Of a DNA stretch of 64,000 bases, positions 24,110 to 49,427 are shown in pieces. The DNA is from Gemmatimonadota bacterium (lineage in GTDB: Bacteria > Gemmatimonadota > Gemmatimonadetes > Longimicrobiales > Gaopeijiaceae). Position numbers and translations under genes: made by a program. The notes under the pieces were generated by a model. The model ran no database searches and was not told where the DNA came from. It saw only the letters and a program-made list of their open reading frames with translations. Numbering within the stretch: position 1 is the first letter of the stretch; each line of letters begins with the position of its first letter. The DNA is taken from NCBI GenBank assembly GCA_030428885.1, contig JAUIEJ010000001.1, positions 124,001 to 188,000 of the forward strand. The letters are read 5' to 3'.

Positions 24110-24120
24110 CCCCAGGTCGC

Positions 24121-26922: not shown

Positions 26923-29589
26923 TCACGCGTCGCGAATCGTGAGGGCCGGATCCACCCGGGCGACCCGGAGCGCGGGGACCAGCGCCGACGCCACCAGGGC
27001 GACGGCCAGGGCCCCCGCCAGGGCGGCCAGAACCGAGGGGGGCACCGGGTCGATGGCCACCACGAACCCGTTGAGCACCGTGCCCAGCCACTGGGACGCC
27101 AGGAGCCCCAGGGCCACCCCCACGGCGAGGAGCCTCGCCCCCTGGAGCACCACCATGGCCACCACCCGGGGGCGGGACGCGCCCAGGGCGAGGCGGGTGC
27201 CGATTTCCCGGGTCTGGAGGCTCACCCGGTAGGCCACCAGGCCGTAGACCCCCACGCAGGCCAGGAGCAGTCCCACGGCGGCGAAGGCGGTGGCCAGAGC
27301 CGCGCTCGTGCGCTCTTCGCCGAGCACGTCGGAGCGGAGCTGCTCCAGCGTCGCGTCGCCGAAGGTGGCCAGGGTGGGGTCGATGGTCGCCACCGCCCGC
27401 CGCATGGCGCCCAGGGGATCGCCGCTCCGGGGGGCGGCCACCAGATGGACGATCTCGGCCGAGGAGCCCGTGGGCTCCTGCTCCAGGGGGAGGTACCACG
27501 ATTCCGTGTAGGCGCCTTCGCGGTGCAGGGTGGGGATCACGCCCACCACCTCCCGGAAGGGGCGCCCCTCCCGGTCCACGCCGATCCGTTTCCCGATGGG
27601 GTCTTCGCCGGGCCACAGACGCTGGGCCAGGGCCTGGTCCACGATGACCACGAGGGGTGAGCCCGGCCGGTCCTGGGGTCCGAACGCGCGACCCCGCACC
27701 ACGGACACGCCCACCGTCTCGAAGAACCCCGGGGTGACGTAGGTGTGGTGAATGAGCTGGGGCGGGGCGTCGGCCGGGCGCTCCTGGCCCTCGGCCCGGA
27801 CCGGCGCGGCCCAGTCGCCGCAACAGAGGGGGTTCACCGAGATGATGCCCACCGACGCCACCTCGGGCAGCCGGCCGATCTCGGTCTCCAGGGCCTGGTA
27901 CAACGCCCCCCGGGCATCGGGGGTGGACCAGCGTTCCGTGTCCACGGCGACCTGGAGCGTGGCGATCCCCTCGGTCTCGAACCCCAGATCGGCGCGGCGC
28001 ATTCCCTCGAAGTGACGGAAGAGGGCCGCCGAGCCGGCCAGGAGCGTCAGGGCCAGGGCGACCTCCGAGACCACCATGGCGCCCTGGAGGCGACCGCCGT
28101 GGGCGCCACCTCGAGCGCCCCGGCGCAGAGCTCCACCCAGGTCGCCCCGGGACGCCCGCCACGCCGCGCCGCCACCGGTGACGAGGCCGGCCGCCACCGC
28201 GAACCCGAGAGCGCCGAACACCACCACCGGCTCGAAGCGCATGCGGGGCACGTCGAGCTGGGTGCGGAAGACGTCGGGAATGAGGGCGCCGGCCGCTCCG
28301 GCCAGCAGCGCTGCCAACCCCAGTCCCGCCACGGCGCCGCCCACGAAGAGCACGAGGGATTCGGTGGCGGCCAGGCGTGCGATGCGCAGGCGGGAGGCCC
28401 CCAGGATGCCTCGGAGGGTGGTCTCGGACGATCGCGCCGACATGCGGAGGCCCAGGAGGTTGCCGACGTTGACGCAGGCCAGGACCAGGAGGAACACCAC
28501 CGCCGCCGACAGGGCGCGCAGGGGGTCGGCGTGGTCCCGGATGAAGTCGGCCCGGATCGAGGCCACGTGGACCCCGTCGTCGGGGGTCGTGCCCGGCGCC
28601 TCGGCCTGGAGCGCCCCGTACACCCGGGCCACGTCGGCCCGGGCCGCCTCGGCGTCGATCCCCGGGGCCAGGCGCGCCACCACGTTGAGGTTGTGGGGCT
28701 GCCACGCCGCCGGGTCGAACCGCCCCGGGAGCCAGACGTCGGCGTCGTAGGGGTAGCCGAAGCCCGCGGGGAGGACGCCCACGACCCGCAGGGGGCCGTC
28801 GGCCGTGCGCAGGGTGCCGCCCACGGCCTCGGGGGCGCCGCCGAGGTGGCGCGTCCACACGGCGTACGACACCAGGGCGACCCGGGCGTCGGGGCCGGCG
28901 GCCTCCTCGTCGGGGGTGAACCCCCGGCCCAGGGCGGGGCGAACGCCCACCAGGTCGGCCCACCCGTCGGACACCGAGATGCTGGACACCCGGGTCGCCC
29001 CGTCGTCGCCCAGGATCGCCAGGGACCCGCCCCCCATGGCGGCTACTCCGGTGAAGGCCCGGGCCGACTCCCGGAGGGCGAGGAAGTCGCGCGGGCTCAT
29101 GTTGTAGACCCGCTCGCCACCGTCGGCGTCGACGAACGAACGCAGCCGGACCAGGGCGTCGGCGTCGTCGAAGGGAAGGGCGCCCCGATACACGGTGTTG
29201 AGCACACCGAGGATCGAGGTCGTGCCCCCCAGGCCGATGGCCAGGGTCAGGAGGACCGAGAGGGTGAACGCCGGGGTGCGGGCCAGTCCCCGGACGGCGA
29301 CCCGGATGTCCGACCCCAGGTCGGCCGCCAGTTCCCGGAGCGTGGGCCCGAAGGCCCGCCCGCCCGGTGCGTCGATGCCCACCACCAGGGCCACCGGGGT
29401 CTCGTCGCGGGTGAAGACCACCCGCAGCTCCACCTCGCCGATCCGGACCCGGGCCGCCCGGGCGTCGAAGGGGTCGGGGCCGGGGTCGCCCTCGCCGCGC
29501 TGCAGTCCATCGAGTGCCCGGGACACCCGCCGCCGAGCCACGGGACCCAGCGAGCGCAGCGTACCTTCGGCGTCGCGGGAGAGGCGCAC
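26923..29589 (-). CDS. ADOP-type MacB/FtsX permease with RelE-like N-terminus
   Basis: An 888-residue protein. From about residue 85 it is a standard ADOP permease: amphipathic helix, first membrane helix, MacB-like periplasmic core, three-helix FtsX block, a second periplasmic core and a final FtsX block (ADOP permeases are orphan ABC permeases). The first 75 residues do not match the usual helical ADOP N-terminus. They read MRLSRDAEGTLRSLGP, then VSRALDGL, RVRIGEVELRVVF, and VALVVGID, the RelE/ParE toxin pattern. A Phd-type antitoxin lies 23 bases upstream. The start is uncertain: the GTG at 29589 sits in a frame that remains open upstream (WEVRLS precedes it; a CTG at 29616 overlaps the antitoxin TGA), and an internal GTG could start the permease alone. 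The long open frame makes a true fusion likely. Confidence 0.85.
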   Translation of the reverse strand: MRLSRDAEGTLRSLGPVARRRVSRALDGLQRGEGDPGPDPFDARAARVRIGEVELRVVFTRDETPVALVVGIDAPGGRAFGPTLRELAADLGSDIRVAVRGLARTPAFTLSVLLTLAIGLGGTTSILGVLNTVYRGALPFDDADALVRLRSFVDADGGERVYNMSPRDFLALRESARAFTGVAAMGGGSLAILGDDGATRVSSISVSDGWADLVGVRPALGRGFTPDEEAAGPDARVALVSYAVWTRHLGGAPEAVGGTLRTADGPLRVVGVLPAGFGYPYDADVWLPGRFDPAAWQPHNLNVVARLAPGIDAEAARADVARVYGALQAEAPGTTPDDGVHVASIRADFIRDHADPLRALSAAVVFLLVLACVNVGNLLGLRMSARSSETTLRGILGASRLRIARLAATESLVLFVGGAVAGLGLAALLAGAAGALIPDVFRTQLDVPRMRFEPVVVFGALGFAVAAGLVTGGGAAWRASRGDLGGALRRGARGGAHGGRLQGAMVVSEVALALTLLAGSAALFRHFEGMRRADLGFETEGIATLQVAVDTERWSTPDARGALYQALETEIGRLPEVASVGIISVNPLCCGDWAAPVRAEGQERPADAPPQLIHHTYVTPGFFETVGVSVVRGRAFGPQDRPGSPLVVIVDQALAQRLWPGEDPIGKRIGVDREGRPFREVVGVIPTLHREGAYTESWYLPLEQEPTGSSAEIVHLVAAPRSGDPLGAMRRAVATIDPTLATFGDATLEQLRSDVLGEERTSAALATAFAAVGLLLACVGVYGLVAYRVSLQTREIGTRLALGASRPRVVAMVVLQGARLLAVGVALGLLASQWLGTVLNGFVVAIDPVPPSVLAALAGALAVALVASALVPALRVARVDPALTIRDA

Positions 29590-29612: not shown

Positions 29613-29867
29613 TCAGAGCCCCAACTCGCGCTTGAGGGCGTGCCAGGCCGCGGCTTCGTCGGTATCCAGTTCGTCCAGCGCCCGGCTGACTTCCTGGCGG
29701 CTCAGGAACCCCCGGAGGCGGTCCGCCAGCGTGGCGTCGGAGGCCGGTACGATGGCCGCCAACTCCTGGCCCCGCCGCGTCACCAGGACCGATTCCCCGC
29801 CGTAGGCCGCCCGGTTGATGAGCTCGGCCAGGCGCTTCCGCGCCTCTACGGTCGTCACGTCGTCCAC
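29613..29867 (-). CDS. Phd/YefM-family antitoxin
   Basis: An 84-residue antitoxin. MDDVTTVEARKRLAELINRA and VLVTRRGQELAAIVP are the Phd/YefM signature (dimer strand and helices), and the C-terminal helix (VSRALDELDTDEAAAWHALK) is the toxin-binding part. GTG start at 29867 with a purine-rich stretch (GGGGGA) upstream. Its normal partner is a RelE- or Doc-type toxin; the only candidate is the RelE-like N-terminus of the permease 23 bases downstream. Confidence 0.88.
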   Translation of the reverse strand: MDDVTTVEARKRLAELINRAAYGGESVLVTRRGQELAAIVPASDATLADRLRGFLSRQEVSRALDELDTDEAAAWHALKRELGL

Positions 29868-29931
29868 GCTCCGTCCCCCGTTACGAGATGTACAGTTCGT
29901 ACGTTGGGTACGCCGGAGGGGGGGCGAGGTT

Positions 29932-30363
29932 TCAATCCGTGGGCGGCGCCTCCCGAAACGGATTCACGATCCGCAGGCCGAAGACCGTCTGGTCGTGTTG
30001 GAGATCCTCGGTGAGGAGGGTCTCGCAGCCGGCCGCGAGGGCCTGGGCGACGATGAGGGAATCCCACCAGGAAAAGCCGAATCGATCTTCCACCGCCCAA
30101 GCGTGCTCGAGTACGGCGAGATCGGTGACCACCGGTGCCCAGGTCGCCAGGGCCGCGACGTCGTCACGAACCTCCTCGGCGTCTGCCGGCGGGGCCAGCT
30201 TCCGTACGAGCGTGACGTAGAACTCCTGCAGGACCTGGACGCTCAGGCGGCCCGATCCGCGGTCCCATAGAACCGCCAGCCACTCCACGGCACGTCTCTG
30301 CTTCTCGGGATCCGACGGATCCCGGGCGTAGACCAGCACGTTGGTGTCAACGAAGACCGGCAC
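29932..30363 (-). CDS. PIN-domain toxin (VapC-like)
   Basis: A 143-residue PIN ribonuclease toxin with a full acidic set: Asp6 in FVDTNVLVYA, Glu47 in VLQEFYVTL, Asp101 in WWDSLIVAQA and Asp120 in LLTEDLQH. It starts at a GTG inside the end of the antitoxin gene (17-base overlap), so translation should be coupled. It is a third type II pair in the window and is unlike the two at 15.6-17.0 kb in sequence. Confidence 0.93.
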   Translation of the reverse strand: MPVFVDTNVLVYARDPSDPEKQRRAVEWLAVLWDRGSGRLSVQVLQEFYVTLVRKLAPPADAEEVRDDVAALATWAPVVTDLAVLEHAWAVEDRFGFSWWDSLIVAQALAAGCETLLTEDLQHDQTVFGLRIVNPFREAPPTD

Positions 30364-30601
30364 GATCGTGCAACTCCGCTCTGGACGGGAGTCGCCGCTC
30401 GGGCACCACGGCCACGTAGGGCGCCTTCGCCAGGAATCGGCGGCGCGCCGCTTCGTACGCCTCGCCGGACTCCATCTTCTCGCGGAGAAGGGCGCCGACG
30501 AAGCGCGAGACGCTGGTGTCCCGGCGTGCCGCCTCGATCCGGGCCCAGCGCGCCGTGTCTTCGTCGAGGGTGATGGTGACGTTTCGTCTGGAGCGGCTCA
30601 T
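30347..30601 (-). CDS. CopG/ribbon-helix-helix antitoxin
   Basis: An 84-residue antitoxin: RRNVTITLDEDTARWARIEAA is the ribbon and first helix, TSVSRFVGALLREK the second helix, then a tail with AKAPYVAVVPERRLPSRAELH for toxin binding. The ATG lies two bases from a pair of palindromes on the promoter side, the usual place for an autorepressor. Confidence 0.9.
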   Translation of the reverse strand: MSRSRRNVTITLDEDTARWARIEAARRDTSVSRFVGALLREKMESGEAYEAARRRFLAKAPYVAVVPERRLPSRAELHDRAGLR

Positions 30602-30602
30602 A

Positions 30603-30635
30603 CACGAAGTTCGTGCTGCACGAGATTCGTGTCAA
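30603..30635 (-). promoter_or_regulatory. Tandem palindromic operator and promoter of the toxin-antitoxin pair
   Basis: Two 13-base palindromes, CACGAAGTTCGTG (30603-30615, perfect arms of six) and CACGAGATTCGTG (30619-30631, one mismatch), are set 16 bases apart. A consensus TTGACA lies on the minus strand at 30635-30630. With a 17-base spacer the -10 would be GAACTT inside the first palindrome, a weak match. The site fits a ribbon-helix-helix antitoxin dimer pair. The TTGACA overlaps the stop region of the upstream kinase gene. Confidence 0.7.
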
Positions 30636-33178
30636 TTCGCCGGTCCCTCTCCCGCCTCCATCGGACCTTCGTCCAGCAGCGCCCGGGTGCGCTCGGTTCG
30701 GGGATCGTCGGGGCCGAACCGGGACTCGAGGATCTCCAGCGCCTCTTCCAGCAGGCCCCGGGCCCCGCCCCCATCGCCCGCGGCTCGCGCCGTGCCGGCC
30801 AGTCCCACCAGGCTCTGGGCCACGTCGGGGTGATCCGGGCCGAGCCGACGCCGACGGAGAGCCAGGGCTTGGCGGTGCAGGGAATCGCTGCGTTGGAGCT
30901 GGCCCCGGGCCCGGGCGACCTCGGCCAGACCGTTGAGACTGAAGGCCACGTGGGGATGCTCGGGCCCCAGGACCTCCCGCCGGATGTCCAGGGAGCGACG
31001 GTACAATCCCTCGGCCTCGTCCCACGACGCCCGCTCTCTCAACACGTCGCCCAGGTTGCTCATGACGCTGGCCGTCCGGGGATGCCGCTCCCCGAACCCG
31101 TCCGACGCCAGCTCCAGGCTTCGGCGCAGCAGTTCCTCGGCCTCGCCGTACTCGCCCCGATCCCGGAGGGAGAGGGCCAGGTTGGCCATGGCCAGCGCCA
31201 CCTGGGGGTTGGAGGGGCCCAGAAGCCGCTGGCGCAGCGCCAGGGACTCCCGCAGGAGCGGCTCCGCCTCGTCGTTTCTGCCCTGGGCCTGCAGCACCAG
31301 GGCGAGGTTGTTGAGGGTCACCACCAGCGCCGGATGGGTCGCGCCGTAGAGGGTGCGACGCATGGCGAGGGACTCCCGGTAGAGGGCCGCGGCGTCGTCG
31401 TAGCGGCCCTGGAGCTGGTGGAGCAGGGCCACGTTGTGCACCGACTCCGCCACATCCCGGTGGGGCGGCTCGAAGAGGCGACGCCGCATGTCCAGGGCAT
31501 CCACGAGAAGGGGCTCGGCCCCCTCGAAGTCCTGGCGTGCGAAGAGCAACAACTGGCCGAGGTCGTTGAGGCTCTCGGCGATGGCTTCGTGGGGACCCCG
31601 GAACCGGGCTCGCCGGACGCGCAGCGCCTCTTCGAAGAGGGTCTGGGCCTCGTCGAACTGGCCCCGGGCGTCCAGGACTCCGCCCAACGCGTTGAGGCTG
31701 CGGGCCACGTCGGCGTGGTCGGGACCGAGCACGTCGCGGCGGATCGCCAGGGACCGGCGCAGGGGCGGCTCGGCCTGGTCCGGGAGTCCCAGACTGCGGT
31801 AGAGGCCGCCCACCACCTCCATGAGGGCCGCCTGCACTTCGGGTTGCCCCGACAGCTCCGCCTCGATCCGCGCTTCGCTCCGGTCCAGCAGGGCCCGGGC
31901 CGTGAGGGTGTCGCCCAGCGCTTCGGCCGGATCCGACCCCTGGAGGAGGTCCACCAGGAGCGCCGTCACCTGCTGGGCCTTGTCCCGCTCGCCGGCGATC
32001 CGGACGGACTGGATCGCGAACACCGTGAGGCCGGCCAGGAGTCCCACCACCGCCAGCGTCGACGCCGCCACCCCCCACCGGTGGCGCCCCACGAACTTCC
32101 GCAGACGGTAGGGCAGCGAATCGGCCTGGGCCGTGATGGGGAGCCCCCTGCGGTAGCGGTCCACCTCGTCGGCCAGCCGGTCGGCGGACTCGTAGCGGCG
32201 CTCGGGCTCGGGCCGGAGGGCCGTGGCGACGATGAGGTCCAGGTCCCCCCGCAACCGGGTGGCGGGCACCGGAGCCTCGGCGCCCCGCCGTGCCGCCGTG
32301 GCGCTGGGTCGGGCTCCGCCCTCGGCCCGCTCGCCCGTGAGAAGGGTGAACAGCAGGAGTCCCAGGCCGTAGACGTCCGACGCGGTGGTGAGGGGCGCAC
32401 CCCGGATCTGCTCGGGACTGGCGAAGGCCGGGGTGAGATAGCGGGCGTCGGCCCGGGTGGCGTCCTGGGACCCCTCGTCCGAGTCCAGCAGCTTGGCGAC
32501 CCCGAAGTCCAGCAGCTTGGGCTCGCCGTCCGGCGTGATGAGGATGTTGGACGGCTTCAGGTCGCGGTGCAGGACCAGGTTCTGGTGGGCGTAGTTCACC
32601 GCGCGGCAGATGGAGCGGAAGAGCGTCAGACGCTCGTCGAGTCCCGGCGAGGTGTGGGCCAGGTGCTCCGTGAGCGGCACCCCGTCGATGTACTCCATGA
32701 CGAAATACGGGCGGCCGTCGGAGGTGACGCCCCCGTCCAGGAGACGGGCGATGTGGGGGTGGTCGAGACGGGCCAGGACCTGCCGCTCCAGGAGGAAGCG
32801 ACCCAGGACTTCGTCGGTGTCCATGCCCCGGCGAATCACCTTGATGGCCACCCGCTGCTCGAAGCCGCCCTCGTCTCGTTCGCCCTCGTAGACGATGCCC
32901 ATGCCCCCGCGGCCGATCTCCCGGGTGATGCGGAACGGGCCGATCCGTTCGGGAAGGCCCACCCGCCCCCGGGCCACGAGGCGGGCGCCCAGATCCAGGA
33001 GCGGTTCCTCGAGAAAGGACCCGGTGCGGTCGTGGTGACGGAGCAGGCCCTGGAGTTCGTCCCGGAGGGGCGACCCGGGGGGGCAGCGTTCGTCGACGAA
33101 GGCGGCCCGGGACTCGGGCGGGAGTTCCAGCGCCTCTCCGAAGAGGGCCTTGAGAGCGCTCCAGTCCGCCGAGGCCAT
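30632..33178 (-). CDS. Ser/Thr protein kinase with membrane helix and TPRs
   Basis: An 848-residue Hanks-type kinase. The ATG at 33178 is preferred over the GTG at 33217 because MASADWSALKALFGEAL is the usual start of this family. A leading helical domain (about 1-75), kinase domain (about 80-345) with GRGGMGIVY, Lys113 in VAIKVI, HRDLKPSN (Asp206) and DFG (Asp224), then one membrane helix near 360-385, and about ten kinesin-light-chain TPRs to the C-terminus. The TPRs are outside if topology is normal. It lies directly after the ECF sigma gene. Sigma-plus-kinase pairs of this kind are frequent in Acidobacteriota and Gemmatimonadota and the kinase probably governs the sigma factor or vice versa. 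Confidence 0.93.
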   Translation of the reverse strand: MASADWSALKALFGEALELPPESRAAFVDERCPPGSPLRDELQGLLRHHDRTGSFLEEPLLDLGARLVARGRVGLPERIGPFRITREIGRGGMGIVYEGERDEGGFEQRVAIKVIRRGMDTDEVLGRFLLERQVLARLDHPHIARLLDGGVTSDGRPYFVMEYIDGVPLTEHLAHTSPGLDERLTLFRSICRAVNYAHQNLVLHRDLKPSNILITPDGEPKLLDFGVAKLLDSDEGSQDATRADARYLTPAFASPEQIRGAPLTTASDVYGLGLLLFTLLTGERAEGGARPSATAARRGAEAPVPATRLRGDLDLIVATALRPEPERRYESADRLADEVDRYRRGLPITAQADSLPYRLRKFVGRHRWGVAASTLAVVGLLAGLTVFAIQSVRIAGERDKAQQVTALLVDLLQGSDPAEALGDTLTARALLDRSEARIEAELSGQPEVQAALMEVVGGLYRSLGLPDQAEPPLRRSLAIRRDVLGPDHADVARSLNALGGVLDARGQFDEAQTLFEEALRVRRARFRGPHEAIAESLNDLGQLLLFARQDFEGAEPLLVDALDMRRRLFEPPHRDVAESVHNVALLHQLQGRYDDAAALYRESLAMRRTLYGATHPALVVTLNNLALVLQAQGRNDEAEPLLRESLALRQRLLGPSNPQVALAMANLALSLRDRGEYGEAEELLRRSLELASDGFGERHPRTASVMSNLGDVLRERASWDEAEGLYRRSLDIRREVLGPEHPHVAFSLNGLAEVARARGQLQRSDSLHRQALALRRRRLGPDHPDVAQSLVGLAGTARAAGDGGGARGLLEEALEILESRFGPDDPRTERTRALLDEGPMEAGEGPAN

Positions 33179-33194
33179 GGGCTCGGGACCCGGG

Positions 33195-33770
33195 TCAGCC
33201 GGTCCGGGTGAGCTCACGATGGAGCCACGCCTTGGCCATGGCCCACTCCCGCTTGACCGTGGCGGGAGAGATGTCCAGCACCTCGGCCGTCTCTTCGATG
33301 GTGAGGCCGCCGAAGAAGCGGTAGGTGACGATCTCGCCCTGGCGGGGATCCACCTTCGTCAGGGCCGACAGGGCATCGTCCAGTCCCACGAGGGTCTGGG
33401 GGTGTCCGTCGCCCAGGGGCTCGGATTCGAGCTGCTCGATGGAGACGTGGTCTGCGCCCGCGCCCCGCTTCTGGGCCAGGCGTTCCCGGGCGTGATCGAT
33501 GACGATGCGGCGGATCGAACGAGACGCGATGGCGAAGAAGTGGGCCCGGTTCTTCCAGGTCACCCGCGTCTGGTCCACCAGTTTGAGGTACGCCTCGTGG
33601 ACCAGAGCCGTGGTGTTCAGCGTGAACTCGGCCGGCTCGGACCGCCGTTGCCCGTGGGCGATGGCCCGGAGCTCGTCGTACACCAGCGGCAACAGGCGGT
33701 CGAGGGCCTGTTGGTTGCCGCCGCTCGCTTCCTGGAGGAGCTGCGTCACTTCCGTGGGGGGAGCCGCCAT
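33195..33770 (-). CDS. ECF-type sigma factor (TIGR02999-like)
   Basis: A 191-residue sigma factor of the type described as 'sigma-70 family, ECF, TIGR02999'. Region 2 reads LLPLVYDELRAIAHGQRRS, FTLNTTALVHEAYLKL, and WKNRAHFFAIASRSIRRIVIDHAR; region 4 has GLTIEETAEVLDISPATVKREWAMAKAWL (helix-turn-helix). No anti-sigma gene is next to it; control by the following Ser/Thr kinase is likely. It starts 39 bases after the giant VWA gene. Confidence 0.95.
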   Translation of the reverse strand: MAAPPTEVTQLLQEASGGNQQALDRLLPLVYDELRAIAHGQRRSEPAEFTLNTTALVHEAYLKLVDQTRVTWKNRAHFFAIASRSIRRIVIDHARERLAQKRGAGADHVSIEQLESEPLGDGHPQTLVGLDDALSALTKVDPRQGEIVTYRFFGGLTIEETAEVLDISPATVKREWAMAKAWLHRELTRTG

Positions 33771-33809
33771 GGGCCCAACATAGGGGCGGGCCGCCTCCCG
33801 GGACCACGG

Positions 33810-36800
33810 TCAGCCGCCGTACCGGGTGAGGTAGGCCTCGTACAGTCCCTCGGCCTCGCCGCAGTCCCCCCGTTGGGCCGCCGCCAGGATGCTGAACGCC
33901 AGCGCTCTCTGGTCGGTGTCCCGGACCCGGCTCGATTCCGCACGGGCCCAGGCGTAGAGCTGGGGACACCGGCCCGGCTCGAAGATGGCGTTGGGCCGCT
34001 CCCGCTGGAGTTCTTCCAGCGACCGGATCCGGTCTTCCACCGAGGCCCGATCGGGGGCGCCGGGGAGGAGGTCGAGGTAGCGGCGCGCCGCCTCGATGGC
34101 GCCCAGCGTGCGGCCCTCGGCCTCGTAGGCCAGGGAGAGGTTGAACTGGGCGGTGGCGGCGTCGGGGTGCTCCCGGGCGGCCTGCTCGAAGGTCAGGCGG
34201 GCCGACTCGAAGTCGTCCTGCTGGAGGTAGGCCAGGGCGGTGCGGTACAGGTCGGCCAGACGCACCCGGCTCGCCCCGTCGACGTAGGGATCCTGGGTGC
34301 GGACCTGGCCCGCCAGCGAGGCCCGCCGGAACGCCCGGTACAGCTCCTCGGCGGAGTTGGCGGAGTACTGCTTTCCCGTGCCCGCCGATCGCACCAGATC
34401 GCCCAGTTGGGTCTCGGCCGCGCCGCCGGACTCGAGTCCCAGCCCCACGCCGTCGAGCTGGATGGGGATGGGGCTCGAGCGAATGCGGGAGCCGGCGTCC
34501 CGCACGGCCCCGTCCCCCCCGCAACTGTTCTGGCCGTCGCTGAGGAGGAGGATCTGCCCGGCCCGGCCCCGGGCGTTCTGCTCCAGATGGGCCTGGGCCG
34601 CCCCCACCGCCGGAGCCATGGGGGTGCCCCCGCCGGGCCGCACGCCGGCGATGGCCTGCTCCATGACGCCCCGGTCCACGGTGAAGTCCTGCACCACCCG
34701 CCACCCGCTCCCGCAGCCGCCGCTGTAGGTCATGAGGGCGACCTCGACGTTGGGCCCCAGGGACCGCACGGTGTGCTGAGCGGCGGAGCGGGCCGCCTCG
34801 ATCTTTCCGTCGTTGCCCATGCTCCCGGAGGCGTCGATGAGGAGGACGACGGAGCGATCCACCGGCACCGTGGGGGCGGTGCCCGGGCCCACCTGCAGGG
34901 TCTGGATGAAGCCCTGGATCCAGCCCCGGTCGCAGTCCGGGGCGGTGGACAGGGCCTCTTCGGCCAGGCGCCCGGCGGCGTCCAGGTCGCCCGACGCCCG
35001 GGCCGCGCCGGCCCGGTCCATGAGGGCTTCGGCCCGCTCCTGGCCCCGGGCCTCCACCCGGAACTCCAGCAGATCGGTCTGGACCCACTCCAGGGTGGGG
35101 TCCATGGCGGCCACCTGATCGCCGAGCTCCACGGCGGCCACGAAGTCGCACTGGTTGGCGGCCTCCACCGCCTGCCGCATGAGACGGGCGGCCTCGTCGG
35201 CCAGACCCTCCATGGCCGCCTCGATCCCGGCGAGTTCGCAGCCCGGGAGATCGGCCAGGGCCGCGGCGTCCCGGAGGGTGGCCAACGCCGCGTCCGTGCG
35301 TCCCGCCCCGGCCTCGAGGCGGGCCGTGGCCTGGAGTTCCTCCGCCGTGCGCTCCGCCGCGGCGGCCCGGTCCAGCGCTGCCTTCTCGGCCTGGAATTCG
35401 CCCCGGAGCGCCCCCACCTCGGGGGGAACACCGTTGGGGAACGCCGACGCCAACCACCGTTCCACCAGCTCGACGATGCGGGTCTGGGCGTTGGCAGCGG
35501 CGGCCCAGTCGCAGCGCGCCCGGGCGTCGTCTCGCTCGCCTTCCAGGGTCGACGTCAGGGGCTCCAGGTCCCGCACCACCTCGTCCAGGGGGGTGCCGCC
35601 GGGGTTCTCGCCGCCCGGCGGCCCGCCGCCCCCACCCGTGGAGTCGGCGGGCGGCGGATCGACGGTCGTCGGCCCGGGGGCGCTGTCGGCCGGGGTGGCC
35701 ACCACGGGCCGCAGCACGAGCTCTCCCAGGTCGAGGGCCGCTCCGGTGCCGTCGACGGTAGCCTGGGCCGTGGCGCGGTACCGCACGCCGTCGGCTTCGG
35801 CGAGGGCCGTGACCTCCAGGCCGGCGCCCACCAGGACGGGGTCGGGGGACGCCAGGGAGAACCGGTCGCCCACCGAGTGGGCCCATTCGCCGGCGAACAG
35901 GGTCGAGGTGATGACCGCGTCCACGGGAGCGGCGCGCCCGTCGGGAACGTCGGCCACGGCCAGGGAGCCCAGGGCGGAGAAGCGCCCCGCGCCGTAGAGG
36001 GGAAGGGTGATCTCCACCGGGTCGGGCAGCACCGGACTCTCCCACACCGGGATGTCGTTCAACACCACCCGGCCGGTTCGTTCGATGGAGGCGCCGCCCA
36101 CCGTCATGGCCGCGGTGACCACGAGTTCGTCGGTGGTCTTCTCGAACACGCCGCGGCCGCGGAAGGCCGGGCCGTCGGGGGCCGCCGCCTCGTCGTTCAC
36201 GGTGACGTCCACGTCGGGGGCGGAAAGAGGCCCGCCCGTGACGTCGGCCACGGCGATGGCGAACCCGTCGAGACGAACGTCCCACCGCTCCACGGCGAAG
36301 GGCCCCACGCTCAACTCGTGGCCCGGCGCGAGATCCAGTTCCAGAGGCCGAGCCACGGGGCGGATCAGGTAGTCCTGGGCCTCCCGGAGCGTGACGGCCA
36401 GGCGCGGGGAATCTTCGAGCCGGAGCACCCGGGCGTTGACCAGGGAAAATGTGCCGTCGCCGGCGACGACCCCCGTTCCGAAGTCGTCGCCCTGAAGGGA
36501 CCCGCCCACGATCTCGAGAGAGGCCCCGCTCGCCGGCTCGAACGACCCCACCACCGTGAGGTGGGCGGCCTCGAAGAAGGGCAGCTCCAGACGGACGAAG
36601 GGTTGGTCCCGGGACATCCACGTGGCCTGGGTCGAGGCCCGGGCGGGCGGGTTCGGCGGCGCCCGCTGGGCTTCGACCGTGAAGGGCTCGCCCTCGCGAA
36701 GAGTGAGGAGGAGCGCCTGGGGATCGGCCGGTGAGGACCGGGCGGCGTCGGCCGGGCCCGTGACCGTGATGTCGGCGTCGGGAATGGAGTATCCGGCGGC

Positions 36801-39800
36801 GTCGGTCACCTCGACGGTGATGAGGGTTCGCGCGCCCTGGTTCAGGACCAGCATCTGTTCGGGGGTGATGGAGCCGGGCTGGGCGCGGGTCAGGACCGCG
36901 GGCCCCCGAGGGGTGGCGGCCAACCCCACGTCGGCGGCCGCCGAGCCCAGGCTGAGCCAGGCCCGGGGCTCCCGACCCGGCGCTCCGGATCCGGTCAGTC
37001 GGTAGCGCTCCAGCCAGTCCTCCGAGACGGCCGAGACCTCCAGGTCGAAGGCCCCGGGGGCCACGGCGCCCATGGGCTGGCCGTCCAGGACCACCCACGG
37101 ACGTTCGGTGCCCGGGTCGCCGCCCACGATCTCCACGGTTCCGGTGAAGCGGGCCGGGGCGACCTCGATGGACACGGTATCGCTACCGAGCCCGATGTCG
37201 CCCGGACCCAGGGGGACCACTTCCAGAACATGGGGGCCGGCCCGGAGGGGGTGGGCCTCCCAGTCGGCGTCCACCGTGATCTCGCTGGCTTCGGTGCCCC
37301 CGGCACCGGTGAGGAACCACCGGTATCCGCGCACCAGGGTGCGGGCGTCGAGGGTCGGGGGTCCGGCGGGAAGATCGGTGCGGGTCTGGACCGCGGCGGC
37401 CCCGTCGACGGTGCCCAGGAGCACCGCATCGGCCGCACCCGTGGTCACGTCGACGGTGACGAGCTCGAACAGACCGCCCAGGAGTTCGGCGTACTCGTTC
37501 TCGAAGTCCTGGACGTGCTGGGCAACGGTGGCGGCCCGCGCCCCATCGCCCAGATCCCCGGGGAGAAACGCCCGGCCCTTCTTCTGCATGGAGCCCAGGG
37601 CCTTCGTGAGCTCCGCCGCCGACGCCCCGTCGATCCGGGACCGGATCCGCTCCAGCTTGTGGATCTGTTTGCGCAGGCGGAGCAGGTAGGGGAAGTACGG
37701 GTGGGAGAGGGCGAGGGAGAGCCAGTCACCCTGGCCCGTGGCCCGGTAGATCACGTCGTGGGCCCCGGCGAAGAGGTCGTCCACCACCTCCGACCCGCTG
37801 CCCAGCTCCCGGGCCAGGGAGAGGCCCCGTGCGTCGTAGAAGCCCTGCATCCGGGCCCCCACGTCCCGGGCCACCCGGGCCTCCTCGTCGCGATACGCCC
37901 CGGCCCACTCCGCCACCCGGGCCGAGTCGGGGCTCACGTTGCCCGACAACCAGGAGTCGTTGGTTTCGGCGGTGATCCCCACGTGGTATTCCCGGATCTC
38001 CGGACCGTCCTGGGCCACCCACCCCCGGTTGGCCTCCAGGAGCTTCCGGATCGCGTCGTAGCGAGCCTCGAAGAGGAACAACACGTCGGCGATGGACTGG
38101 AGCAGTTCGGTGGAGCGCCGCTGCGCCTCCACCGGATCCACCACGGTGCTGTCGGCCACCTCCCGGGCCAGCTCGGCGAGAAGGCGCCGACCTTCGGCAG
38201 TGGACGCCCGGAAGGCGTCGCGAATGGGCACGTCGGCGTCGGGGTCGTAGCCCGTGCCGGGAAACGGGTCGGCGGACCGGGCGATGAGGGGCCAGGTGGC
38301 CTTGTCGATGGCGGCGGCCCGGGCGTCGAGACGGTCCAGTTCCTCCTGGAACTCCAGCGGCTCCACGAGGGCGGCCAGCTCCTTCTGCTTGCGCCGGGCG
38401 GCCTCTTCGATGAGGGGCGGCAGCACCCGGTCTTCCAGCAATACCTGCCGGCGGCCCCAGACGTCGGCCACGAGTCGGCCGAACATCTTCCGCGAGGCCG
38501 CCTGACGGTGGGCCTCCCAGTCCCGGTTGCTGCCTCCCCACTCCCCCGGGTCGTCCCGGAGCAGGTACACGGGCACCGTGGCTCCGAAGTCCAGCCGGGT
38601 GTCGTCGTCGATGCTGGGGGCGATGCCCCAATCGTCGCGGATCCACTCGGTGGTCATCTCCCGGCTGCCCGGGACCGGGTTCAGAAAGCTCCCCACGTTG
38701 GCCGCCACGGCCGCCTGCCGCGCGGCGGTGAGGTTGAGGGCCATGAGCTGGTCGGTCTCGATCTGGTTGCCCACGTAGGCCAGGTCGAGCAGCGCCTCCC
38801 GGGGCTGGATGACCCGTCGACTCGTGCGCAGCATGACCCCCTGGTCGAAGGGTGCGGGCTGGCGGCGGGCGACTTCCCGCACGTCGGACACGAGGTCCTG
38901 GGCCCCCGAGCCGTCCCACCGGATCCACCCCTGCAGTTCCGGAGGCTTCACCCCGGTGGAGTCCACGGCCCAGACGCCGTTTTCCACCAGGAGGTCCACG
39001 ACGTCGCTCCGGGCCGAGGAGAGGGTCCACGACGAGTAGATGCCCGTGGCCACGTCCTTGAGGAAGAGCACCGTGGCCACCTGGGGCACGTAGGCCGTGA
39101 GGAGGTCGGTGGTGAGGGCCAGGGTGAGCTGCCGAGCGGTGCCCTCGTCCATGAAGGCCCCGCCGCTGAGCTTCGCGGCGGTACCGAGGGTTCCGCCGAT
39201 GGCGCCCACCACCCCCGGGGTCTTGTACCCGAAGTGCTCCACCACGTCGACGAGTCCCACGGCACTGGCCACGACCTGGGCGTGGGCCCGGGCCATCTGT
39301 TCGGGCGAGCTCGTTCCCGAGTCCCAGTAGATGGCCTTCAGGTTGGCGTACAACTGGTACCCGTCGTTGAACTGGCCGTAGACCTTCTTGATGAACTGGC
39401 CGCCCTGGACCGCCGCCTTGAAGCTGGCCAGCCCGAGGCTCATGCCCTGCTCGACCCGGGTGGGCTCGATGACCTGGGTGCGGGTGGCGCCCGTTTCGTC
39501 GGTCCAGCGCACGGTGACGGGGCGGAGGCCGGCCGGGTCGGTGAACCGGTGCAGCCGCATGACGAGCTCGACGGCCACGTGGGGTTCGCCCTCGAAGTAC
39601 TCCTTGACCCGACGCGCCAGCGTTTCGTCCTGCCAGCCGAAGGTGCGGCCCAGGTCCTCGATGATCCTCACCTCGTCCAGGACGTCGGCCGGGGCGAGCA
39701 CCCGCTCCACGAAGGTGGTGCCGTCCCACATCAGTCCCACCTGGCCCCGGGTGAACTCGCCGGTGGCGACCCGGAGCAGGAGGGCGTCCAGATTGGCGGC

Positions 39801-41429
39801 GCCGATGGCCCGCAGGTGCTGGTTCAGCCGGGTGCCCACCCGCTGGCGCATTTCCCGGAACGCGTCGGCGTTCCGAAGCGACGCCCCCACGCTCTGCACG
39901 AGATCGGTGCGGGCGGCGCTCAGGTACCGGGCCACGTGCCCCGCGTACGGGTCGGTGCCGGCCTCGGCGGCGTCGATACGGGCCCGCAGGTCCTGGTCGA
40001 ACTCCCGCCGCATCTCGGGATCCAGGTTGGCGTACGCCACGGCCAGGGCGTTCAGGACGCCGTTGAGCTGGGCGTCGTCCTGGAGGGACTCCACGGTGGC
40101 CGTGATCCGGCGCCCGTCGGGCCCGTCTTCGGTGGACGCCTCGATTCCCGCTCGCAGGCGTTCCACCAACAGGTCCAGGTGGCGCTCGTGGCCAGCCACC
40201 AGGAGCCGGCGGTTGTAGTCCTCCAGTTCCTCGGCCGACAGTTCGGGAAACCCGGCCGGCGGCTGGACCCAGGCGACGTATTCGGGAGGGAGCTGCTCCC
40301 GCTGCTGGAACCAGCGCCACGCCTCCGACATGCGCTCGGTGTACTTCTTCAGGTACTTGAGCTCGCCGTCGTGGGTCTGGAAGAGCTGTCGGGTCTGGTT
40401 GGTCATCCACCCGAATAGGTCGGTCTCGGGAAAGCCCCGGGGCTCGCTGAGGCCCTCGGGGTTGTAGCGGGAGTAGACCTCGCGGTAGGGCCGGGTGCTG
40501 CCGTCGGGATTCAGGACGTCTTCGGTGATGACGCCCTTGGCGAAGGCCCACTGATCGAGCTGCTCCACGGCGAAGTAGCTGTTGTACTTTTCGGGGTCCG
40601 ACAGCACCCATTCGTGGAGATAACTGGGCAGTGCGGGGGGCGCGTCGGCGTTGATGCCGCCGCCGGCGCGTCCGCCCGGCGCGGCCGTGGGGCCCGCCCG
40701 GATGTCCCACGCCCGGGTGGGCGAGAGGAACTCGATCATGGCCACGCCGGGGTGCATGGGTCGGCCGTATTCCCCGGTGACGCGGAGGAAGTATCCCGCC
40801 GCCGATTCGCCGTTCAGCAGTTCGGCGGCGGCGAAACTCGAGGCCCGGCGCGACGGAAAGTTCGTGACGTCGTCGTCGCTCTGGAACTGCTTGTTCAGGT
40901 CGGCCGGCGGCATGGCCGACAGGTCGCCTCCCGCCGCGGCCCAGCGCAGCCACGCCTGGTGCCGCTCCCCCGACGATCCCACCCGCATGGCGTGACCGAT
41001 GTCCTGGCCGTCGCGCTTCATGGCCGCCTGGGTCTGCATCACCAGCTCGTACTTGGCGGCGTCGAGGGTGAGGAAGACCTGGGGGTCGGCGGCGTGGAAC
41101 GCGGCCCGGAGGTCGGCGTCGCCTGAAAAGGCCTGGTAGTGCTCCAGGACGCCGATGGCGGTCCCCATTCCGGGATTCATCTCGTAGGCGGTCAAGGCCC
41201 CGGCGATGGCGGGGGTCATGCCCGGCAGGGCGCTCCACTTGGCCTCGATGCGGGCCCGGTCTTCGGTGGTGGTGCCCCGGGTGTCGATGGGCTTGAAGAC
41301 GAAGAAGGGCTCCACCGCCTCGGAGGGGGCGTCGGGGTGGACGGCGGCCAGCGACAGCGCCACCCCCAGTGCCACGGCCCCCCGGGTCCACCACCGTCGC
41401 CCGGTCCGCCCCGTCCCCCGCGCCCTCAT
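33810..41429 (-). CDS. Giant secreted protein with C-terminal VWA and TPR domains
   Basis: A 2539-residue protein. The start at 41429 overlaps the M48 protease TGA (ATGA); the N-terminus (TGRRWWTRGAVALGVAL) is a signal peptide with a Tat-like twin Arg. About 1-900 is a long, mostly helical region with a glycine-rich hydrophobic stretch (VVGAIGGTLGTAAKL); no family recognised. The middle (about 1270-2000) holds several beta-sandwich segments of the carboxypeptidase-regulatory/Ig type (for example SIPDADITVTGPADAA). Near the C-terminus a von Willebrand A domain begins (about 2190) with the full MIDAS DASGS (Asp2199) and GGGTPMAPA, followed by TPRs (about 2385-2480). The role is probably a large extracellular or periplasmic scaffold; with M48, SH3/barrel and kinase genes around it, it may be part of a membrane-spanning assembly. 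Confidence 0.85.
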   Translation of the reverse strand: MRARGTGRTGRRWWTRGAVALGVALSLAAVHPDAPSEAVEPFFVFKPIDTRGTTTEDRARIEAKWSALPGMTPAIAGALTAYEMNPGMGTAIGVLEHYQAFSGDADLRAAFHAADPQVFLTLDAAKYELVMQTQAAMKRDGQDIGHAMRVGSSGERHQAWLRWAAAGGDLSAMPPADLNKQFQSDDDVTNFPSRRASSFAAAELLNGESAAGYFLRVTGEYGRPMHPGVAMIEFLSPTRAWDIRAGPTAAPGGRAGGGINADAPPALPSYLHEWVLSDPEKYNSYFAVEQLDQWAFAKGVITEDVLNPDGSTRPYREVYSRYNPEGLSEPRGFPETDLFGWMTNQTRQLFQTHDGELKYLKKYTERMSEAWRWFQQREQLPPEYVAWVQPPAGFPELSAEELEDYNRRLLVAGHERHLDLLVERLRAGIEASTEDGPDGRRITATVESLQDDAQLNGVLNALAVAYANLDPEMRREFDQDLRARIDAAEAGTDPYAGHVARYLSAARTDLVQSVGASLRNADAFREMRQRVGTRLNQHLRAIGAANLDALLLRVATGEFTRGQVGLMWDGTTFVERVLAPADVLDEVRIIEDLGRTFGWQDETLARRVKEYFEGEPHVAVELVMRLHRFTDPAGLRPVTVRWTDETGATRTQVIEPTRVEQGMSLGLASFKAAVQGGQFIKKVYGQFNDGYQLYANLKAIYWDSGTSSPEQMARAHAQVVASAVGLVDVVEHFGYKTPGVVGAIGGTLGTAAKLSGGAFMDEGTARQLTLALTTDLLTAYVPQVATVLFLKDVATGIYSSWTLSSARSDVVDLLVENGVWAVDSTGVKPPELQGWIRWDGSGAQDLVSDVREVARRQPAPFDQGVMLRTSRRVIQPREALLDLAYVGNQIETDQLMALNLTAARQAAVAANVGSFLNPVPGSREMTTEWIRDDWGIAPSIDDDTRLDFGATVPVYLLRDDPGEWGGSNRDWEAHRQAASRKMFGRLVADVWGRRQVLLEDRVLPPLIEEAARRKQKELAALVEPLEFQEELDRLDARAAAIDKATWPLIARSADPFPGTGYDPDADVPIRDAFRASTAEGRRLLAELAREVADSTVVDPVEAQRRSTELLQSIADVLFLFEARYDAIRKLLEANRGWVAQDGPEIREYHVGITAETNDSWLSGNVSPDSARVAEWAGAYRDEEARVARDVGARMQGFYDARGLSLARELGSGSEVVDDLFAGAHDVIYRATGQGDWLSLALSHPYFPYLLRLRKQIHKLERIRSRIDGASAAELTKALGSMQKKGRAFLPGDLGDGARAATVAQHVQDFENEYAELLGGLFELVTVDVTTGAADAVLLGTVDGAAAVQTRTDLPAGPPTLDARTLVRGYRWFLTGAGGTEASEITVDADWEAHPLRAGPHVLEVVPLGPGDIGLGSDTVSIEVAPARFTGTVEIVGGDPGTERPWVVLDGQPMGAVAPGAFDLEVSAVSEDWLERYRLTGSGAPGREPRAWLSLGSAAADVGLAATPRGPAVLTRAQPGSITPEQMLVLNQGARTLITVEVTDAAGYSIPDADITVTGPADAARSSPADPQALLLTLREGEPFTVEAQRAPPNPPARASTQATWMSRDQPFVRLELPFFEAAHLTVVGSFEPASGASLEIVGGSLQGDDFGTGVVAGDGTFSLVNARVLRLEDSPRLAVTLREAQDYLIRPVARPLELDLAPGHELSVGPFAVERWDVRLDGFAIAVADVTGGPLSAPDVDVTVNDEAAAPDGPAFRGRGVFEKTTDELVVTAAMTVGGASIERTGRVVLNDIPVWESPVLPDPVEITLPLYGAGRFSALGSLAVADVPDGRAAPVDAVITSTLFAGEWAHSVGDRFSLASPDPVLVGAGLEVTALAEADGVRYRATAQATVDGTGAALDLGELVLRPVVATPADSAPGPTTVDPPPADSTGGGGGPPGGENPGGTPLDEVVRDLEPLTSTLEGERDDARARCDWAAAANAQTRIVELVERWLASAFPNGVPPEVGALRGEFQAEKAALDRAAAAERTAEELQATARLEAGAGRTDAALATLRDAAALADLPGCELAGIEAAMEGLADEAARLMRQAVEAANQCDFVAAVELGDQVAAMDPTLEWVQTDLLEFRVEARGQERAEALMDRAGAARASGDLDAAGRLAEEALSTAPDCDRGWIQGFIQTLQVGPGTAPTVPVDRSVVLLIDASGSMGNDGKIEAARSAAQHTVRSLGPNVEVALMTYSGGCGSGWRVVQDFTVDRGVMEQAIAGVRPGGGTPMAPAVGAAQAHLEQNARGRAGQILLLSDGQNSCGGDGAVRDAGSRIRSSPIPIQLDGVGLGLESGGAAETQLGDLVRSAGTGKQYSANSAEELYRAFRRASLAGQVRTQDPYVDGASRVRLADLYRTALAYLQQDDFESARLTFEQAAREHPDAATAQFNLSLAYEAEGRTLGAIEAARRYLDLLPGAPDRASVEDRIRSLEELQRERPNAIFEPGRCPQLYAWARAESSRVRDTDQRALAFSILAAAQRGDCGEAEGLYEAYLTRYGG

Positions 41430-42802
41430 CCGCCCAACCTCCGCCGGATCTCGGTGAACTCCCGGCTGTCGATCTGCATCTCCCGGTCCAGGGGGAAGTC
41501 CTCCAGGTACCGGGTCGTGCGCTCGATCCGCTCCGACGTCGGGGGGTGGGTGGCGGTGAGCCGGAAGGGCGTGCTGGGATCGATCTGGTAGAGGCGCACG
41601 AAGAGGCTCGTCATGAACGTCGGGTTGTAGCCGGCGTTGAACGCGATGTGGGTGGCGTAACGGTCGGCCTCCGACTCGTACTGCCGGCTGTAGCCCTTCA
41701 GCAGGAGGTTCACCCCCACGTCGACGCCGATGTCGATGAGCTGGCGGTACAACTCGTTCTCCACCTTCACCAGGGAGAGGAGCGCCGATGCCGTCATGCG
41801 GGTGCGGATCTCCGACACGGTCAGCCGGGCGGCGTGATGGGCGTAGACGTGGCCGAGTTCGTGGGCCAGCACCGCCACCAGCTCGGCCTCGCTCTCGGCG
41901 AAACGCACCAGGCCCGTGTTCACCAGGATGGTGCCCGGGAGGGCGGCCGCGTTGGGCTCGGGCGAGTCGATGACCTCCACCACGTTGTGGATCGGGGGGC
42001 CCAGGGAGTTGGCCTGGAGCTTGTCCACGAGCCGCTGCAGGTAGGCCTTCAGTTCGGGATCGGCCGCCGGGGCGCCCGCCGGCCCGAGTTGGGCCAGACC
42101 CTGGCGGGCGAGGGACATCTCGAACTGGGGCGTCACCTGGACGACGGTCTCGACCTGGAACGTCTGGGGGTTGAAGGTGGTGACCCGGGCTTCCGGCCGG
42201 TCGTAGTAGTCGGCGTACTGGTACCAACCGTCGAGAAAGGCCTCCTCGAAGGGGCGCACCAGCTCCGCCATCTCGCGGTGGAGCTCGGCGTCGGTGGAGA
42301 CGGCCTCCACGTAGGTGGCGTAGTAGCGCGCGTTGCGGCCGTCGCCCTGCTGGGCGTACGCGTTGGCCAGGTACCGGGCCGCGTCCACGGCGTAGGGATC
42401 GGCCTCCAGGATCCGGGTGAGGAACTCGATGGCGTGGGGGTATCCCCGGCCGTCCACGTAGTAGGACTGGTAGAAGAAGACGATGCCCAGTCCCACGGCG
42501 GCGTCCCGGCTATGGGGGTTTGCCGCCAGCGCTTCCTCCAGGATCTCCTGCGCCCGCTCGAGGCTGCCTCGCGTACGGCGTTCGTCTCCCGCCGACACGG
42601 CGTCGAATCCGTCGGCCACCCAGTCCCAGGCGACATCCACGTGCTCCGAGACGTCGGGGAGTCGCTGGCCCTCGGCCGAGGGACCCCGGTAGTCGGGGAA
42701 TCCCCCCTGCATGGCCTGGGCGGGGGCGACGCCGAGGCCACACGCCAGGCCGAGGAGGACGAGGCTCCGGGAGCCGGGGAGCCGGAGGGAGGGGAACGGC
42801 AT
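41426..42802 (-). CDS. M48-family metalloprotease with N-terminal TPRs
   Basis: A 458-residue exported protease with signal peptide (core LVLLGLACGLGVA, cleavage near AQA). Residues about 60-190 are TPR-like (AQEILEEALAANPHSRDAA, IEFLTRILEADPYAVDAARYLANAYAQQG). The M48 zinc site is complete: HELGH (His314, Glu315, His318) and the third ligand Glu378 in ESEADRYA. It resembles the BepA/YfgC type of periplasmic proteases that handle outer-membrane proteins, although here the TPRs precede the catalytic domain. It starts four bases after the SH3/barrel gene and its TGA overlaps the giant gene start. Confidence 0.93.
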   Translation of the reverse strand: MPFPSLRLPGSRSLVLLGLACGLGVAPAQAMQGGFPDYRGPSAEGQRLPDVSEHVDVAWDWVADGFDAVSAGDERRTRGSLERAQEILEEALAANPHSRDAAVGLGIVFFYQSYYVDGRGYPHAIEFLTRILEADPYAVDAARYLANAYAQQGDGRNARYYATYVEAVSTDAELHREMAELVRPFEEAFLDGWYQYADYYDRPEARVTTFNPQTFQVETVVQVTPQFEMSLARQGLAQLGPAGAPAADPELKAYLQRLVDKLQANSLGPPIHNVVEVIDSPEPNAAALPGTILVNTGLVRFAESEAELVAVLAHELGHVYAHHAARLTVSEIRTRMTASALLSLVKVENELYRQLIDIGVDVGVNLLLKGYSRQYESEADRYATHIAFNAGYNPTFMTSLFVRLYQIDPSTPFRLTATHPPTSERIERTTRYLEDFPLDREMQIDSREFTEIRRRLGG

Positions 42803-42806
42803 GGCG

Positions 42807-43856
42807 TCAGTGGAACACGAAGCCGGCCTTCATGAAGGTCTGGTCGTTCTGGCGACCGGCCCACGCCCCGAACTGGACCCCTCCGATGCGCGGCTCGACC
42901 CCCACCAGGAGGTTGACCAGGGACTCGGTGAGGGTGTCGTCGTCGCCGGTGTAGCGGATCTGACCGACCTGGACCGCCACCCGCACCACGTTGCCCTTCT
43001 GATTGCGATAGAAGCCGCCCACTTCGCCGCCGTACCCGATGGTCTGGTAGCTGCCCACCGACGGCGTGATGCTGCCCATGTACCGGGTCCAGTCGCCGAA
43101 GCCCCCGAGGTGGAGGCCGAAGGGAAGCTCCAGGGAGGGCTGGAGGAGGTAGACGCTGAGGGCGCCCGAGACCTCCAGGTCCCACACCGCGTCGTCTTCG
43201 GTGGCCGAGTCGCCCGAGAACGGGCCGCCGCCCAGCTTCTCGATCCCCGGCAGCACCCCGTCGGTGCGGCGTCGACCCTGGATCTCGTTTCGGAACTCCA
43301 CGATGGGCGAGAGCATCCGGGCCCAGGCGAGCTCACCGCCGGGGTGGGGGCCCTCGGTGGAGGAGAAGGCCAGCCGGCCCCAGCCGCCCCGACCGTACAG
43401 GCCTCCCTCGTCGTCGAAGGTCCGGACGGCGTCGGATCCGCCCGCCGCCGCCGGTGCCCCGCCGGCCGACGGGGGCCGGGCCGGGGGCGGGGGCGGAACG
43501 GCCCGATCTCCCGGGGGGCGTGCCGGCGCCGGCGGGCGATCGGGATCGGGAGCCGGGGCCGGTGGGGAGGTGTCGGTGGGGGGAGCCCCTTCGGGCACGG
43601 GGGTGGTGAGGGCTTCCTGCACCCACCCGATCACCCCTTCGGCGGTGCTGACCGCGACCCAATCCTCCTGGCGCTCGAGCACTTCGAGCACCGTCCCGGC
43701 CGCCACGGTGGCCCGGACCTCGGACTCGGTGTTGGGCCGCCGGAAGATCTGGGCCTCGGTCGAGACGGTCACCTGCTCCACCGGCTGGGCCGACACCGCA
43801 GCGGGCGAACAGGCCAGGGTGGCCGCGACGAGAAGCAGTAGGACTCGGCTGGACAC
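42807..43856 (-). CDS. SH3-domain protein with outer-membrane barrel-like C-terminus
   Basis: A 349-residue exported protein. The GTG at 43856 is preferred (GGAG five bases upstream); the frame also allows a GTG at 43889. A signal peptide (core VLLLLVAATLAC, ending AVSAQ) precedes a bacterial SH3 domain (about 30-90: AQIFRRPNTES, VLEVLERQEDWVAV, IGWVQEALT). A proline-rich linker (about 95-145) leads to a region of alternating beta strands ending in FVFH, a typical C-terminal aromatic end for an outer-membrane barrel. First gene of the run to the M48 protease, giant VWA protein, sigma factor and kinase. Confidence 0.82.
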   Translation of the reverse strand: MSSRVLLLLVAATLACSPAAVSAQPVEQVTVSTEAQIFRRPNTESEVRATVAAGTVLEVLERQEDWVAVSTAEGVIGWVQEALTTPVPEGAPPTDTSPPAPAPDPDRPPAPARPPGDRAVPPPPPARPPSAGGAPAAAGGSDAVRTFDDEGGLYGRGGWGRLAFSSTEGPHPGGELAWARMLSPIVEFRNEIQGRRRTDGVLPGIEKLGGGPFSGDSATEDDAVWDLEVSGALSVYLLQPSLELPFGLHLGGFGDWTRYMGSITPSVGSYQTIGYGGEVGGFYRNQKGNVVRVAVQVGQIRYTGDDDTLTESLVNLLVGVEPRIGGVQFGAWAGRQNDQTFMKAGFVFH

Positions 43857-49074: not shown

Positions 49075-49427
49075 CCCCCCAGCGCCTCCGCCGCATCCGT
49101 GAGTCCCAGCAGGCGCGACACCACGCCCGCGTGTGATTTCCAGCGGGCGATCTCGCCCCGCAGTTCCGCCCGCCCGGCTTCGGTGAGGGAGTAGATGCGG
49201 GCCGGTCGGCCCGACGGGGCCTCGTCCCACACGTCGTCCACGAAGCCCGCGTTGCGCAGGCGATGGAGGGCCGGGTACAGAGCCCCCTCCTTGATGTCCA
49301 GGGCGTCGCCGGAGCGGCGCTCGATCCATTCCGCCACGCCGAGGCCGTGGAGAGGCCCGTCGGCCAGGGCCTGGAGGATCAGGAGGTTCAGGGTTCCGTA
49401 GATCGATCCGGAAGGAACGCGGGTCAT
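49071..49427 (-). CDS. PadR-family transcriptional regulator
   Basis: A 118-residue PadR-s1 type repressor with the winged helix at the N-terminus: GTLNLLILQALADGPLHGLG, LDIKEGALYPALHRLRNAG, RIYSLTEAGRAELR. Its start is followed on the promoter side by a perfect palindrome at 49481-49510, and its stop overlaps the start of the ADOP permease, so it probably controls that gene and itself. Such pairs are common in Acidobacteriota and Gemmatimonadota. Confidence 0.95.
   Translation of the reverse strand: MTRVPSGSIYGTLNLLILQALADGPLHGLGVAEWIERRSGDALDIKEGALYPALHRLRNAGFVDDVWDEAPSGRPARIYSLTEAGRAELRGEIARWKSHAGVVSRLLGLTDAAEALGG

What the first reader, a model, noticed from the sequence alone, without database searches (positions are those of the whole stretch)
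30632..43856. Five-gene run: SH3/barrel, M48 protease, 2539-residue VWA protein, sigma factor, TPR kinase
Spacings of 4, -4, 39 and 16 bases make one transcription unit likely. It contains an outer-membrane-like protein, a periplasmic-type M48 protease, a giant secreted VWA protein and, at the end, its likely regulators. This resembles an envelope machine with its own control genes and I do not recognise it as a described system.
Basis: inference. Interest (0 to 1): 0.75.

Follow-up and report, generated by a model that had tools for sequence, protein, structure and literature searches.

The report
Exported M48 protease–giant VWA protein pair
Five neighbouring bacterial genes turn out to be two separate things: a rare, apparently undescribed pair made of an exported protease and a giant exported protein whose tail is conserved but whose front part seems exchangeable, and next to it one of a dozen ordinary sigma-factor/kinase switches that this genome carries.

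Summary
The five genes are real and lie where stated, all on the minus strand: SH3 protein, M48 protease, 2539-residue VWA protein, sigma factor, kinase. The 'one machine with its own regulators' reading is only partly right. Two other genomes of the same class, from two other families, carry the M48 gene (45-47% identity) directly upstream of a giant VWA gene. Neither has the SH3 gene, the sigma factor or the kinase there. The conserved unit is therefore the pair M48 + giant. Between our giant and the relatives, only the last ~590 residues align (TPR, VWA, TPR; 43-44%). They hold all eight of our protein's cysteines, and all eight are invariant. The first ~1900 residues show no detectable similarity to the relatives, which match each other at 53% there. 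The relatives carry near their N-terminus a domain that elsewhere sits at the C-terminal end of RHS and type-VII-linked proteins. The sigma/kinase pair is one of 12 such pairs in this genome. Its sigma has the NTTA motif (DAED missing) of ECF43-like, kinase-activated sigma factors, a known mechanism. Best model: an exported protein with a constant TPR-VWA-TPR module and an exchangeable front, handled by its partner protease. Function is inferred.

The parts
41426..42802 (-). Exported M48 metallopeptidase with N-terminal TPR-like repeats; HELGH zinc motif; core gene of the conserved pair
   Evidence: Pfam M48 2e-29; 45-47% identity to M48 genes directly upstream of giant VWA genes in G254 and G241; N-terminal hydrophobic segment 13-31
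33810..41429 (-). Giant exported protein, 2539 aa; core gene of the conserved pair
   Evidence: ORF and translation; C-terminal homology in two genomes
33810..35585 (-). Conserved C-terminal module of the giant (residues 1949-2539): TPR-like, VWA (about 2194-2356), TPR; eight cysteines, all invariant
   Evidence: 43-44% identity, 8 of 8 cysteines conserved in three proteins; VWA and TPR
35586..35699 (-). Pro/Gly/Ser/Thr-rich linker (about residues 1911-1948) where similarity to the relatives ends
   Evidence: BLASTP alignment starts at residue 1914; low-complexity linker at the same place in G254
35700..41339 (-). N-terminal region (about residues 31-1910), no cysteine, no detectable relative
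   Evidence: No Pfam hit at E<10; no match in related genomes (residues 1-1400 or 31-450), plasmids or phages (residues 1-1400); no alignment to G254/G241
42807..43856 (-). Exported SH3-domain protein, first gene of the run here; not conserved with the pair
   Evidence: SH3_4 1e-10; SH3 domain modelled well, rest not; no match beside the pair in G254/G241
33195..33770 (-). ECF sigma factor, TIGR02999 family, NTTA instead of DAED in region 2.2; separate regulatory module
   Evidence: TIGR02999 2.5e-66; motif alignment; 18 copies of the family in the genome
30632..33178 (-). Transmembrane Ser/Thr kinase with TPR tail, partner of the sigma factor
   Evidence: Pkinase 4e-41, TPR_12 2e-102; hydrophobic segment at 384-402 of P0005, between kinase and TPR; the same sigma-kinase pairing 12 times in the genome

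Best explanation
The run joins two unrelated units. Unit 1 (core: M48 + giant) is an exported pair. The M48 protease and the giant leave the cytoplasm, and the giant's C-terminal TPR-VWA-TPR module, stabilised by disulfides among eight fixed cysteines, is the constant part that docks on the envelope or on a partner. A flexible linker joins it to a large N-terminal region that differs between lineages and is the working or displayed part. The protease, encoded next door in all three genomes, most likely processes, releases or quality-controls the giant. Unit 2 (sigma + kinase) is an independent ECF43-like switch: the sigma lacks the acidic region 2.2 motif and should need phosphorylation by the membrane kinase next to it. 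Shown: gene identity, adjacency in three genomes, the homology boundary, the invariant cysteines, and recurrence of the sigma-kinase pair. Inferred: export, disulfides, protease-substrate relation, exchangeability as a function, sigma activation.
For: M48 adjacent to the giant in G000, G254 and G241 with gaps of -4, 14 and 1 bases. M48 identity 45-47% and C-terminal identity 43-44%, against no alignable N-terminus. Relatives are 53% identical to each other over the N-terminus, so the loss of similarity in ours is not a general property of the region. All eight cysteines of the 2539-aa protein lie in the conserved module and are invariant. Basic/hydrophobic N-termini suggest export. The relatives' N-terminal HSS...SGHY domain occurs at the extreme C-terminus of six other proteins, one of them RHS and one beside WXG100 genes, three of them with a small same-strand gene within about 15 bases downstream. 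Sigma: NTTA motif; 18 family members all carry a Thr there and no DAED; 12 are followed by a kinase; kinase activation of this type is established for ECF43 (PMC8999054, PMC13147305).
Against: Only three carriers of the pair are known and one (G241) is split over two contigs. The N-terminus of our giant is functionally anonymous, and an extremely diverged homologue cannot be excluded without a reliable structure. No direct evidence shows that the protease acts on the giant, and no immunity-like gene sits next to it. The hydrophobicity scan gives no strong segment at the giant's own N-terminus, so its export rests on weaker sequence features. In this genome the close packing of all five genes is compatible with one transcript.
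Confidence: 0.6

Rival explanations
1. One reading: one five-gene envelope machine whose last two genes regulate the first three.
For: All same strand, spacings 4, -4, 39, 16; Xanthomonas EcfK/PknS lie beside and control the T6SS genes they serve (PMC8999054), so a neighbouring target is plausible; no terminator found in the 39-base gap.
Against: Sigma and kinase absent beside the pair in both relatives; the module recurs 12 times with different neighbours; closest sigma relatives in the genus only about 53% identical, no conserved context seen.
Confidence: 0.2
2. The giant is an effector- or toxin-like protein of polymorphic type: constant VWA module, exchangeable N-terminal activity, M48 as processing protease.
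For: Sharp change from 43-44% identity to none at a linker; toxin-type C-terminal domain of RHS and WXG100-linked proteins found in the relatives' N-termini.
Against: That domain is not in our giant (hmmsearch); no adjacent small immunity-like gene in the window or the relatives; the variable part is N-terminal, opposite to classical polymorphic toxins; only three sequences.
Confidence: 0.3
3. Ordinary envelope maintenance: a BepA-like quality-control protease with a large structural VWA/TPR scaffold.
For: M48 plus TPR resembles BepA in parts (NCBIfam hit 5.7e-21 but 75 bits against a cut-off of 570; PDB BepA 6ait).
Against: Reversed domain order (TPR before M48), far below the BepA cut-off, sporadic distribution (3 of 298 genomes with strong hits), which does not suit housekeeping.
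Confidence: 0.2

Closest known systems
ECF43 sigma factors with cognate Hanks-type kinases (EcfK/PknS, EcfP/PknT)
   Same: ECF sigma lacking the DAED motif with a Thr in its place (NTTA here, QTTA consensus), encoded next to a transmembrane Ser/Thr kinase
   Different: Here the family is TIGR02999 in many copies; group assignment in the ECF classification and phosphorylation not tested; regulon unknown
BepA (M48 beta-barrel assembly-enhancing protease)
   Same: Exported M48 protease with TPR repeats, HExxH motif
   Different: TPR precedes M48 instead of following it (the BepA order is from my own knowledge); score far below the family cut-off; encoded with a giant VWA protein
Polymorphic toxin systems (RHS, WXG100-linked)
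   Same: Constant part plus variable part joined at a sharp boundary; relatives' N-terminus holds a domain otherwise found at the end of RHS and type-VII-linked proteins
   Different: Variable part is N-terminal, no immunity gene, VWA/TPR constant part with a neighbouring M48 protease

Membership tests
ECF43-like kinase-activated sigma factors | DAED of region 2.2 replaced by an uncharged motif with Thr (QTTA consensus) | tested here: met
   NTTA in ours; all 18 family members in the genome carry a Thr there without DAED (motif from PMC13147305)
ECF43-like kinase-activated sigma factors | Hanks-type kinase gene next to the sigma gene | tested here: met
   Kinase 16 bases downstream; 12 of 18 in the genome
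ECF43-like kinase-activated sigma factors | Phylogenetic placement in group ECF43 and phosphorylation by the cognate kinase | not tested
   ECF group models are not in the libraries used; TIGR02999 membership only
M48 peptidase family | M48 profile and HExxH zinc site | tested here: met
   PF01435 2.1e-29, above cut-off; HELGH here, HEIAH in relatives
BepA | NCBIfam equivalog cut-off of 570 bits | tested here: not met
   74.8 bits
Polymorphic toxin system | Constant part fused to exchangeable domains | tested here: inconclusive
   Boundary seen in three proteins only
Polymorphic toxin system | Recognisable toxin domain in our protein | tested here: not met
   No Pfam hit at E<10 in residues 1-2110; relatives' domain not found in ours
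Polymorphic toxin system | Adjacent immunity gene | tested here: not met
   Next genes are M48 and, 39 bases on, the sigma factor

The most novel reading that the evidence does not exclude
An undescribed exported two-gene system with the polymorphic layout reversed: a constant eight-cysteine TPR-VWA-TPR tail and a dedicated M48 protease carry exchangeable giant N-terminal regions, some of them with domains shared with toxin proteins.
Probability: 0.3. Interest if true: 0.7.

Novelty: new variant of a known kind. Interest (0 to 1): 0.5.

Why it matters
If the N-terminal exchange holds up, this is a new way of building variable exported proteins with their own protease, found by synteny rather than by known domains, and it gives a concrete partner gene to test. 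The correction also matters: this genome holds many kinase-linked sigma factors, and proximity to one of them is weak evidence for regulation.

Tried and rejected
Search for relatives with the giant's N-terminus in the order, the phylum, the genome collection by short exact patterns, viral contigs, phages and plasmids: nothing. The genome contigs pattern scans reach only close relatives, so other phyla are effectively unsearched. AlphaFold without an alignment for giant residues 31-870 and for the SH3 gene: mean pLDDT about 40, so no fold search was made. Suspected shared nucleotidyltransferase-like motif (SDxDxT) and a shared RYNP stretch between ours and the relatives: hhalign and shuffles do not support them after counting the number of comparisons. 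Anti-phage defence: PADLOC hits only the generic kinase domain among the five proteins. Literature searches for an M48-VWA system found nothing in the held library. Two genome searches failed on the server, so the wider distribution of the SH3 protein was not measured.

Full report
Observation. The five genes are present on the minus strand with the coordinates and spacings given. Domain calls: SH3, M48, VWA and TPR at the end of the giant, ECF sigma of TIGR02999, Ser/Thr kinase with TPR and a single hydrophobic segment between kinase and TPR. A barrel in gene 1 is plausible from the sequence but unproven.

What is conserved. A search of 298 genomes of the phylum with the giant's C-terminal part gave two strong relatives, G241 and G254 (44%, E 1e-136 and 1e-121). 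The M48 protein gave the same two genomes (46-47%, E about 1e-120) while all other hits were at E 1e-20 to 1e-25. In G254 the M48 gene ends 14 bases before a 2261-residue giant; in G241 it ends one base before a giant that runs off the contig, and a matching C-terminal part starts another contig; that these two pieces are one gene is inferred. A further search of 288 genomes in the order of G254 found no more carriers. In neither relative is there an SH3 gene, a sigma factor or a cognate kinase beside the pair; the only kinase match is a weak one on the other strand several kilobases away in G254. The unit is therefore M48 + giant, rare and scattered over three families.

Architecture of the giant. 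Between ours and G254, BLASTP aligns only residues 1914-2537. M48 identities are 45.6, 46.5 and 68.8% and C-terminal identities 43.0, 44.0 and 71.1% (ours-G254, ours-G241, G254-G241), while the N-terminal regions are 53.4% identical between the relatives and not alignable to ours (hhalign; shuffles). A homologous N-terminus diverging at a similar pace should still have been detectable, so replacement is the simpler reading, though extreme divergence is not excluded. All eight cysteines of our protein lie in the C-terminal module and are invariant in the three proteins, which fits an oxidising, extracytoplasmic place (inference).

The relatives' N-terminus. A region around residues 200-340 (HSS...SGHY motif) matches six plasmid-encoded proteins, each time at or near the very C-terminal end; one is an RHS protein with a small overlapping downstream gene and one follows two WXG100 genes. 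That is the usual place of toxin domains (own knowledge of polymorphic toxins; general account in PMC3482391, found). A profile of this domain finds nothing in our giant. No immunity-like gene flanks the giant in the window. A toxin role is therefore a lead for the relatives, not a result for the window.

The sigma-kinase pair. The genome holds 18 sigma genes over the TIGR02999 cut-off; 12, including ours, are followed within -13 to +70 bases by a same-strand kinase gene, and their other neighbours do not resemble the SH3 protein or the giant (gene calling there is rough). All 18 lack DAED in region 2.2 and carry a Thr there; ours reads NTTA. In ECF43 proteins the QTTA motif marks sigma factors that need phosphorylation by the neighbouring Hanks-type kinase (PMC8999054, PMC13147305). 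The mechanism of this unit is thus known in kind; its regulon is not.

Verdict. Observation confirmed; interpretation partly supported. The pair M48 + giant is a genuine, apparently undescribed module with a conserved tail and a lineage-specific front. The regulators are a recurring, independent module that may or may not act on its neighbour in this genome.

Noticed in passing
whole genome G000; window 33195-33770: 18 TIGR02999 sigma factors in one 5.4-Mb genome, all without DAED and with a Thr in region 2.2, 12 paired with kinases: a large set of predicted phosphorylation-activated sigma factors.
   Followed up: partly
L106:7254-8290 (G254) and L107:13380-14430 (G241): HSS...SGHY domain, not in Pfam, shared with the C-termini of an RHS protein, a WXG100-linked protein and four other plasmid-encoded proteins; candidate uncharacterised toxin domain.
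   Followed up: partly
29613-30601: Phd/YefM antitoxin, PIN toxin and an 84-aa ORF directly downstream of the kinase on the same strand: a toxin-antitoxin module.
   Followed up: no
49554-50351: 265-aa protein with a ThsB-type TIR domain (Pfam 1e-9; PADLOC 4e-19).
   Followed up: no
21437-24571: 1044-aa protein with a caspase (C14) domain and a PPC domain.
   Followed up: no
26923-29589, 46438-49329, 50731-53448: Three MacB/FtsX-type permeases within 27 kb, one next to a PadR regulator (53450-53791).
   Followed up: no
60034-63342: 1102-aa protein combining SAM, guanylate cyclase, AAA and TPR domains.
   Followed up: no
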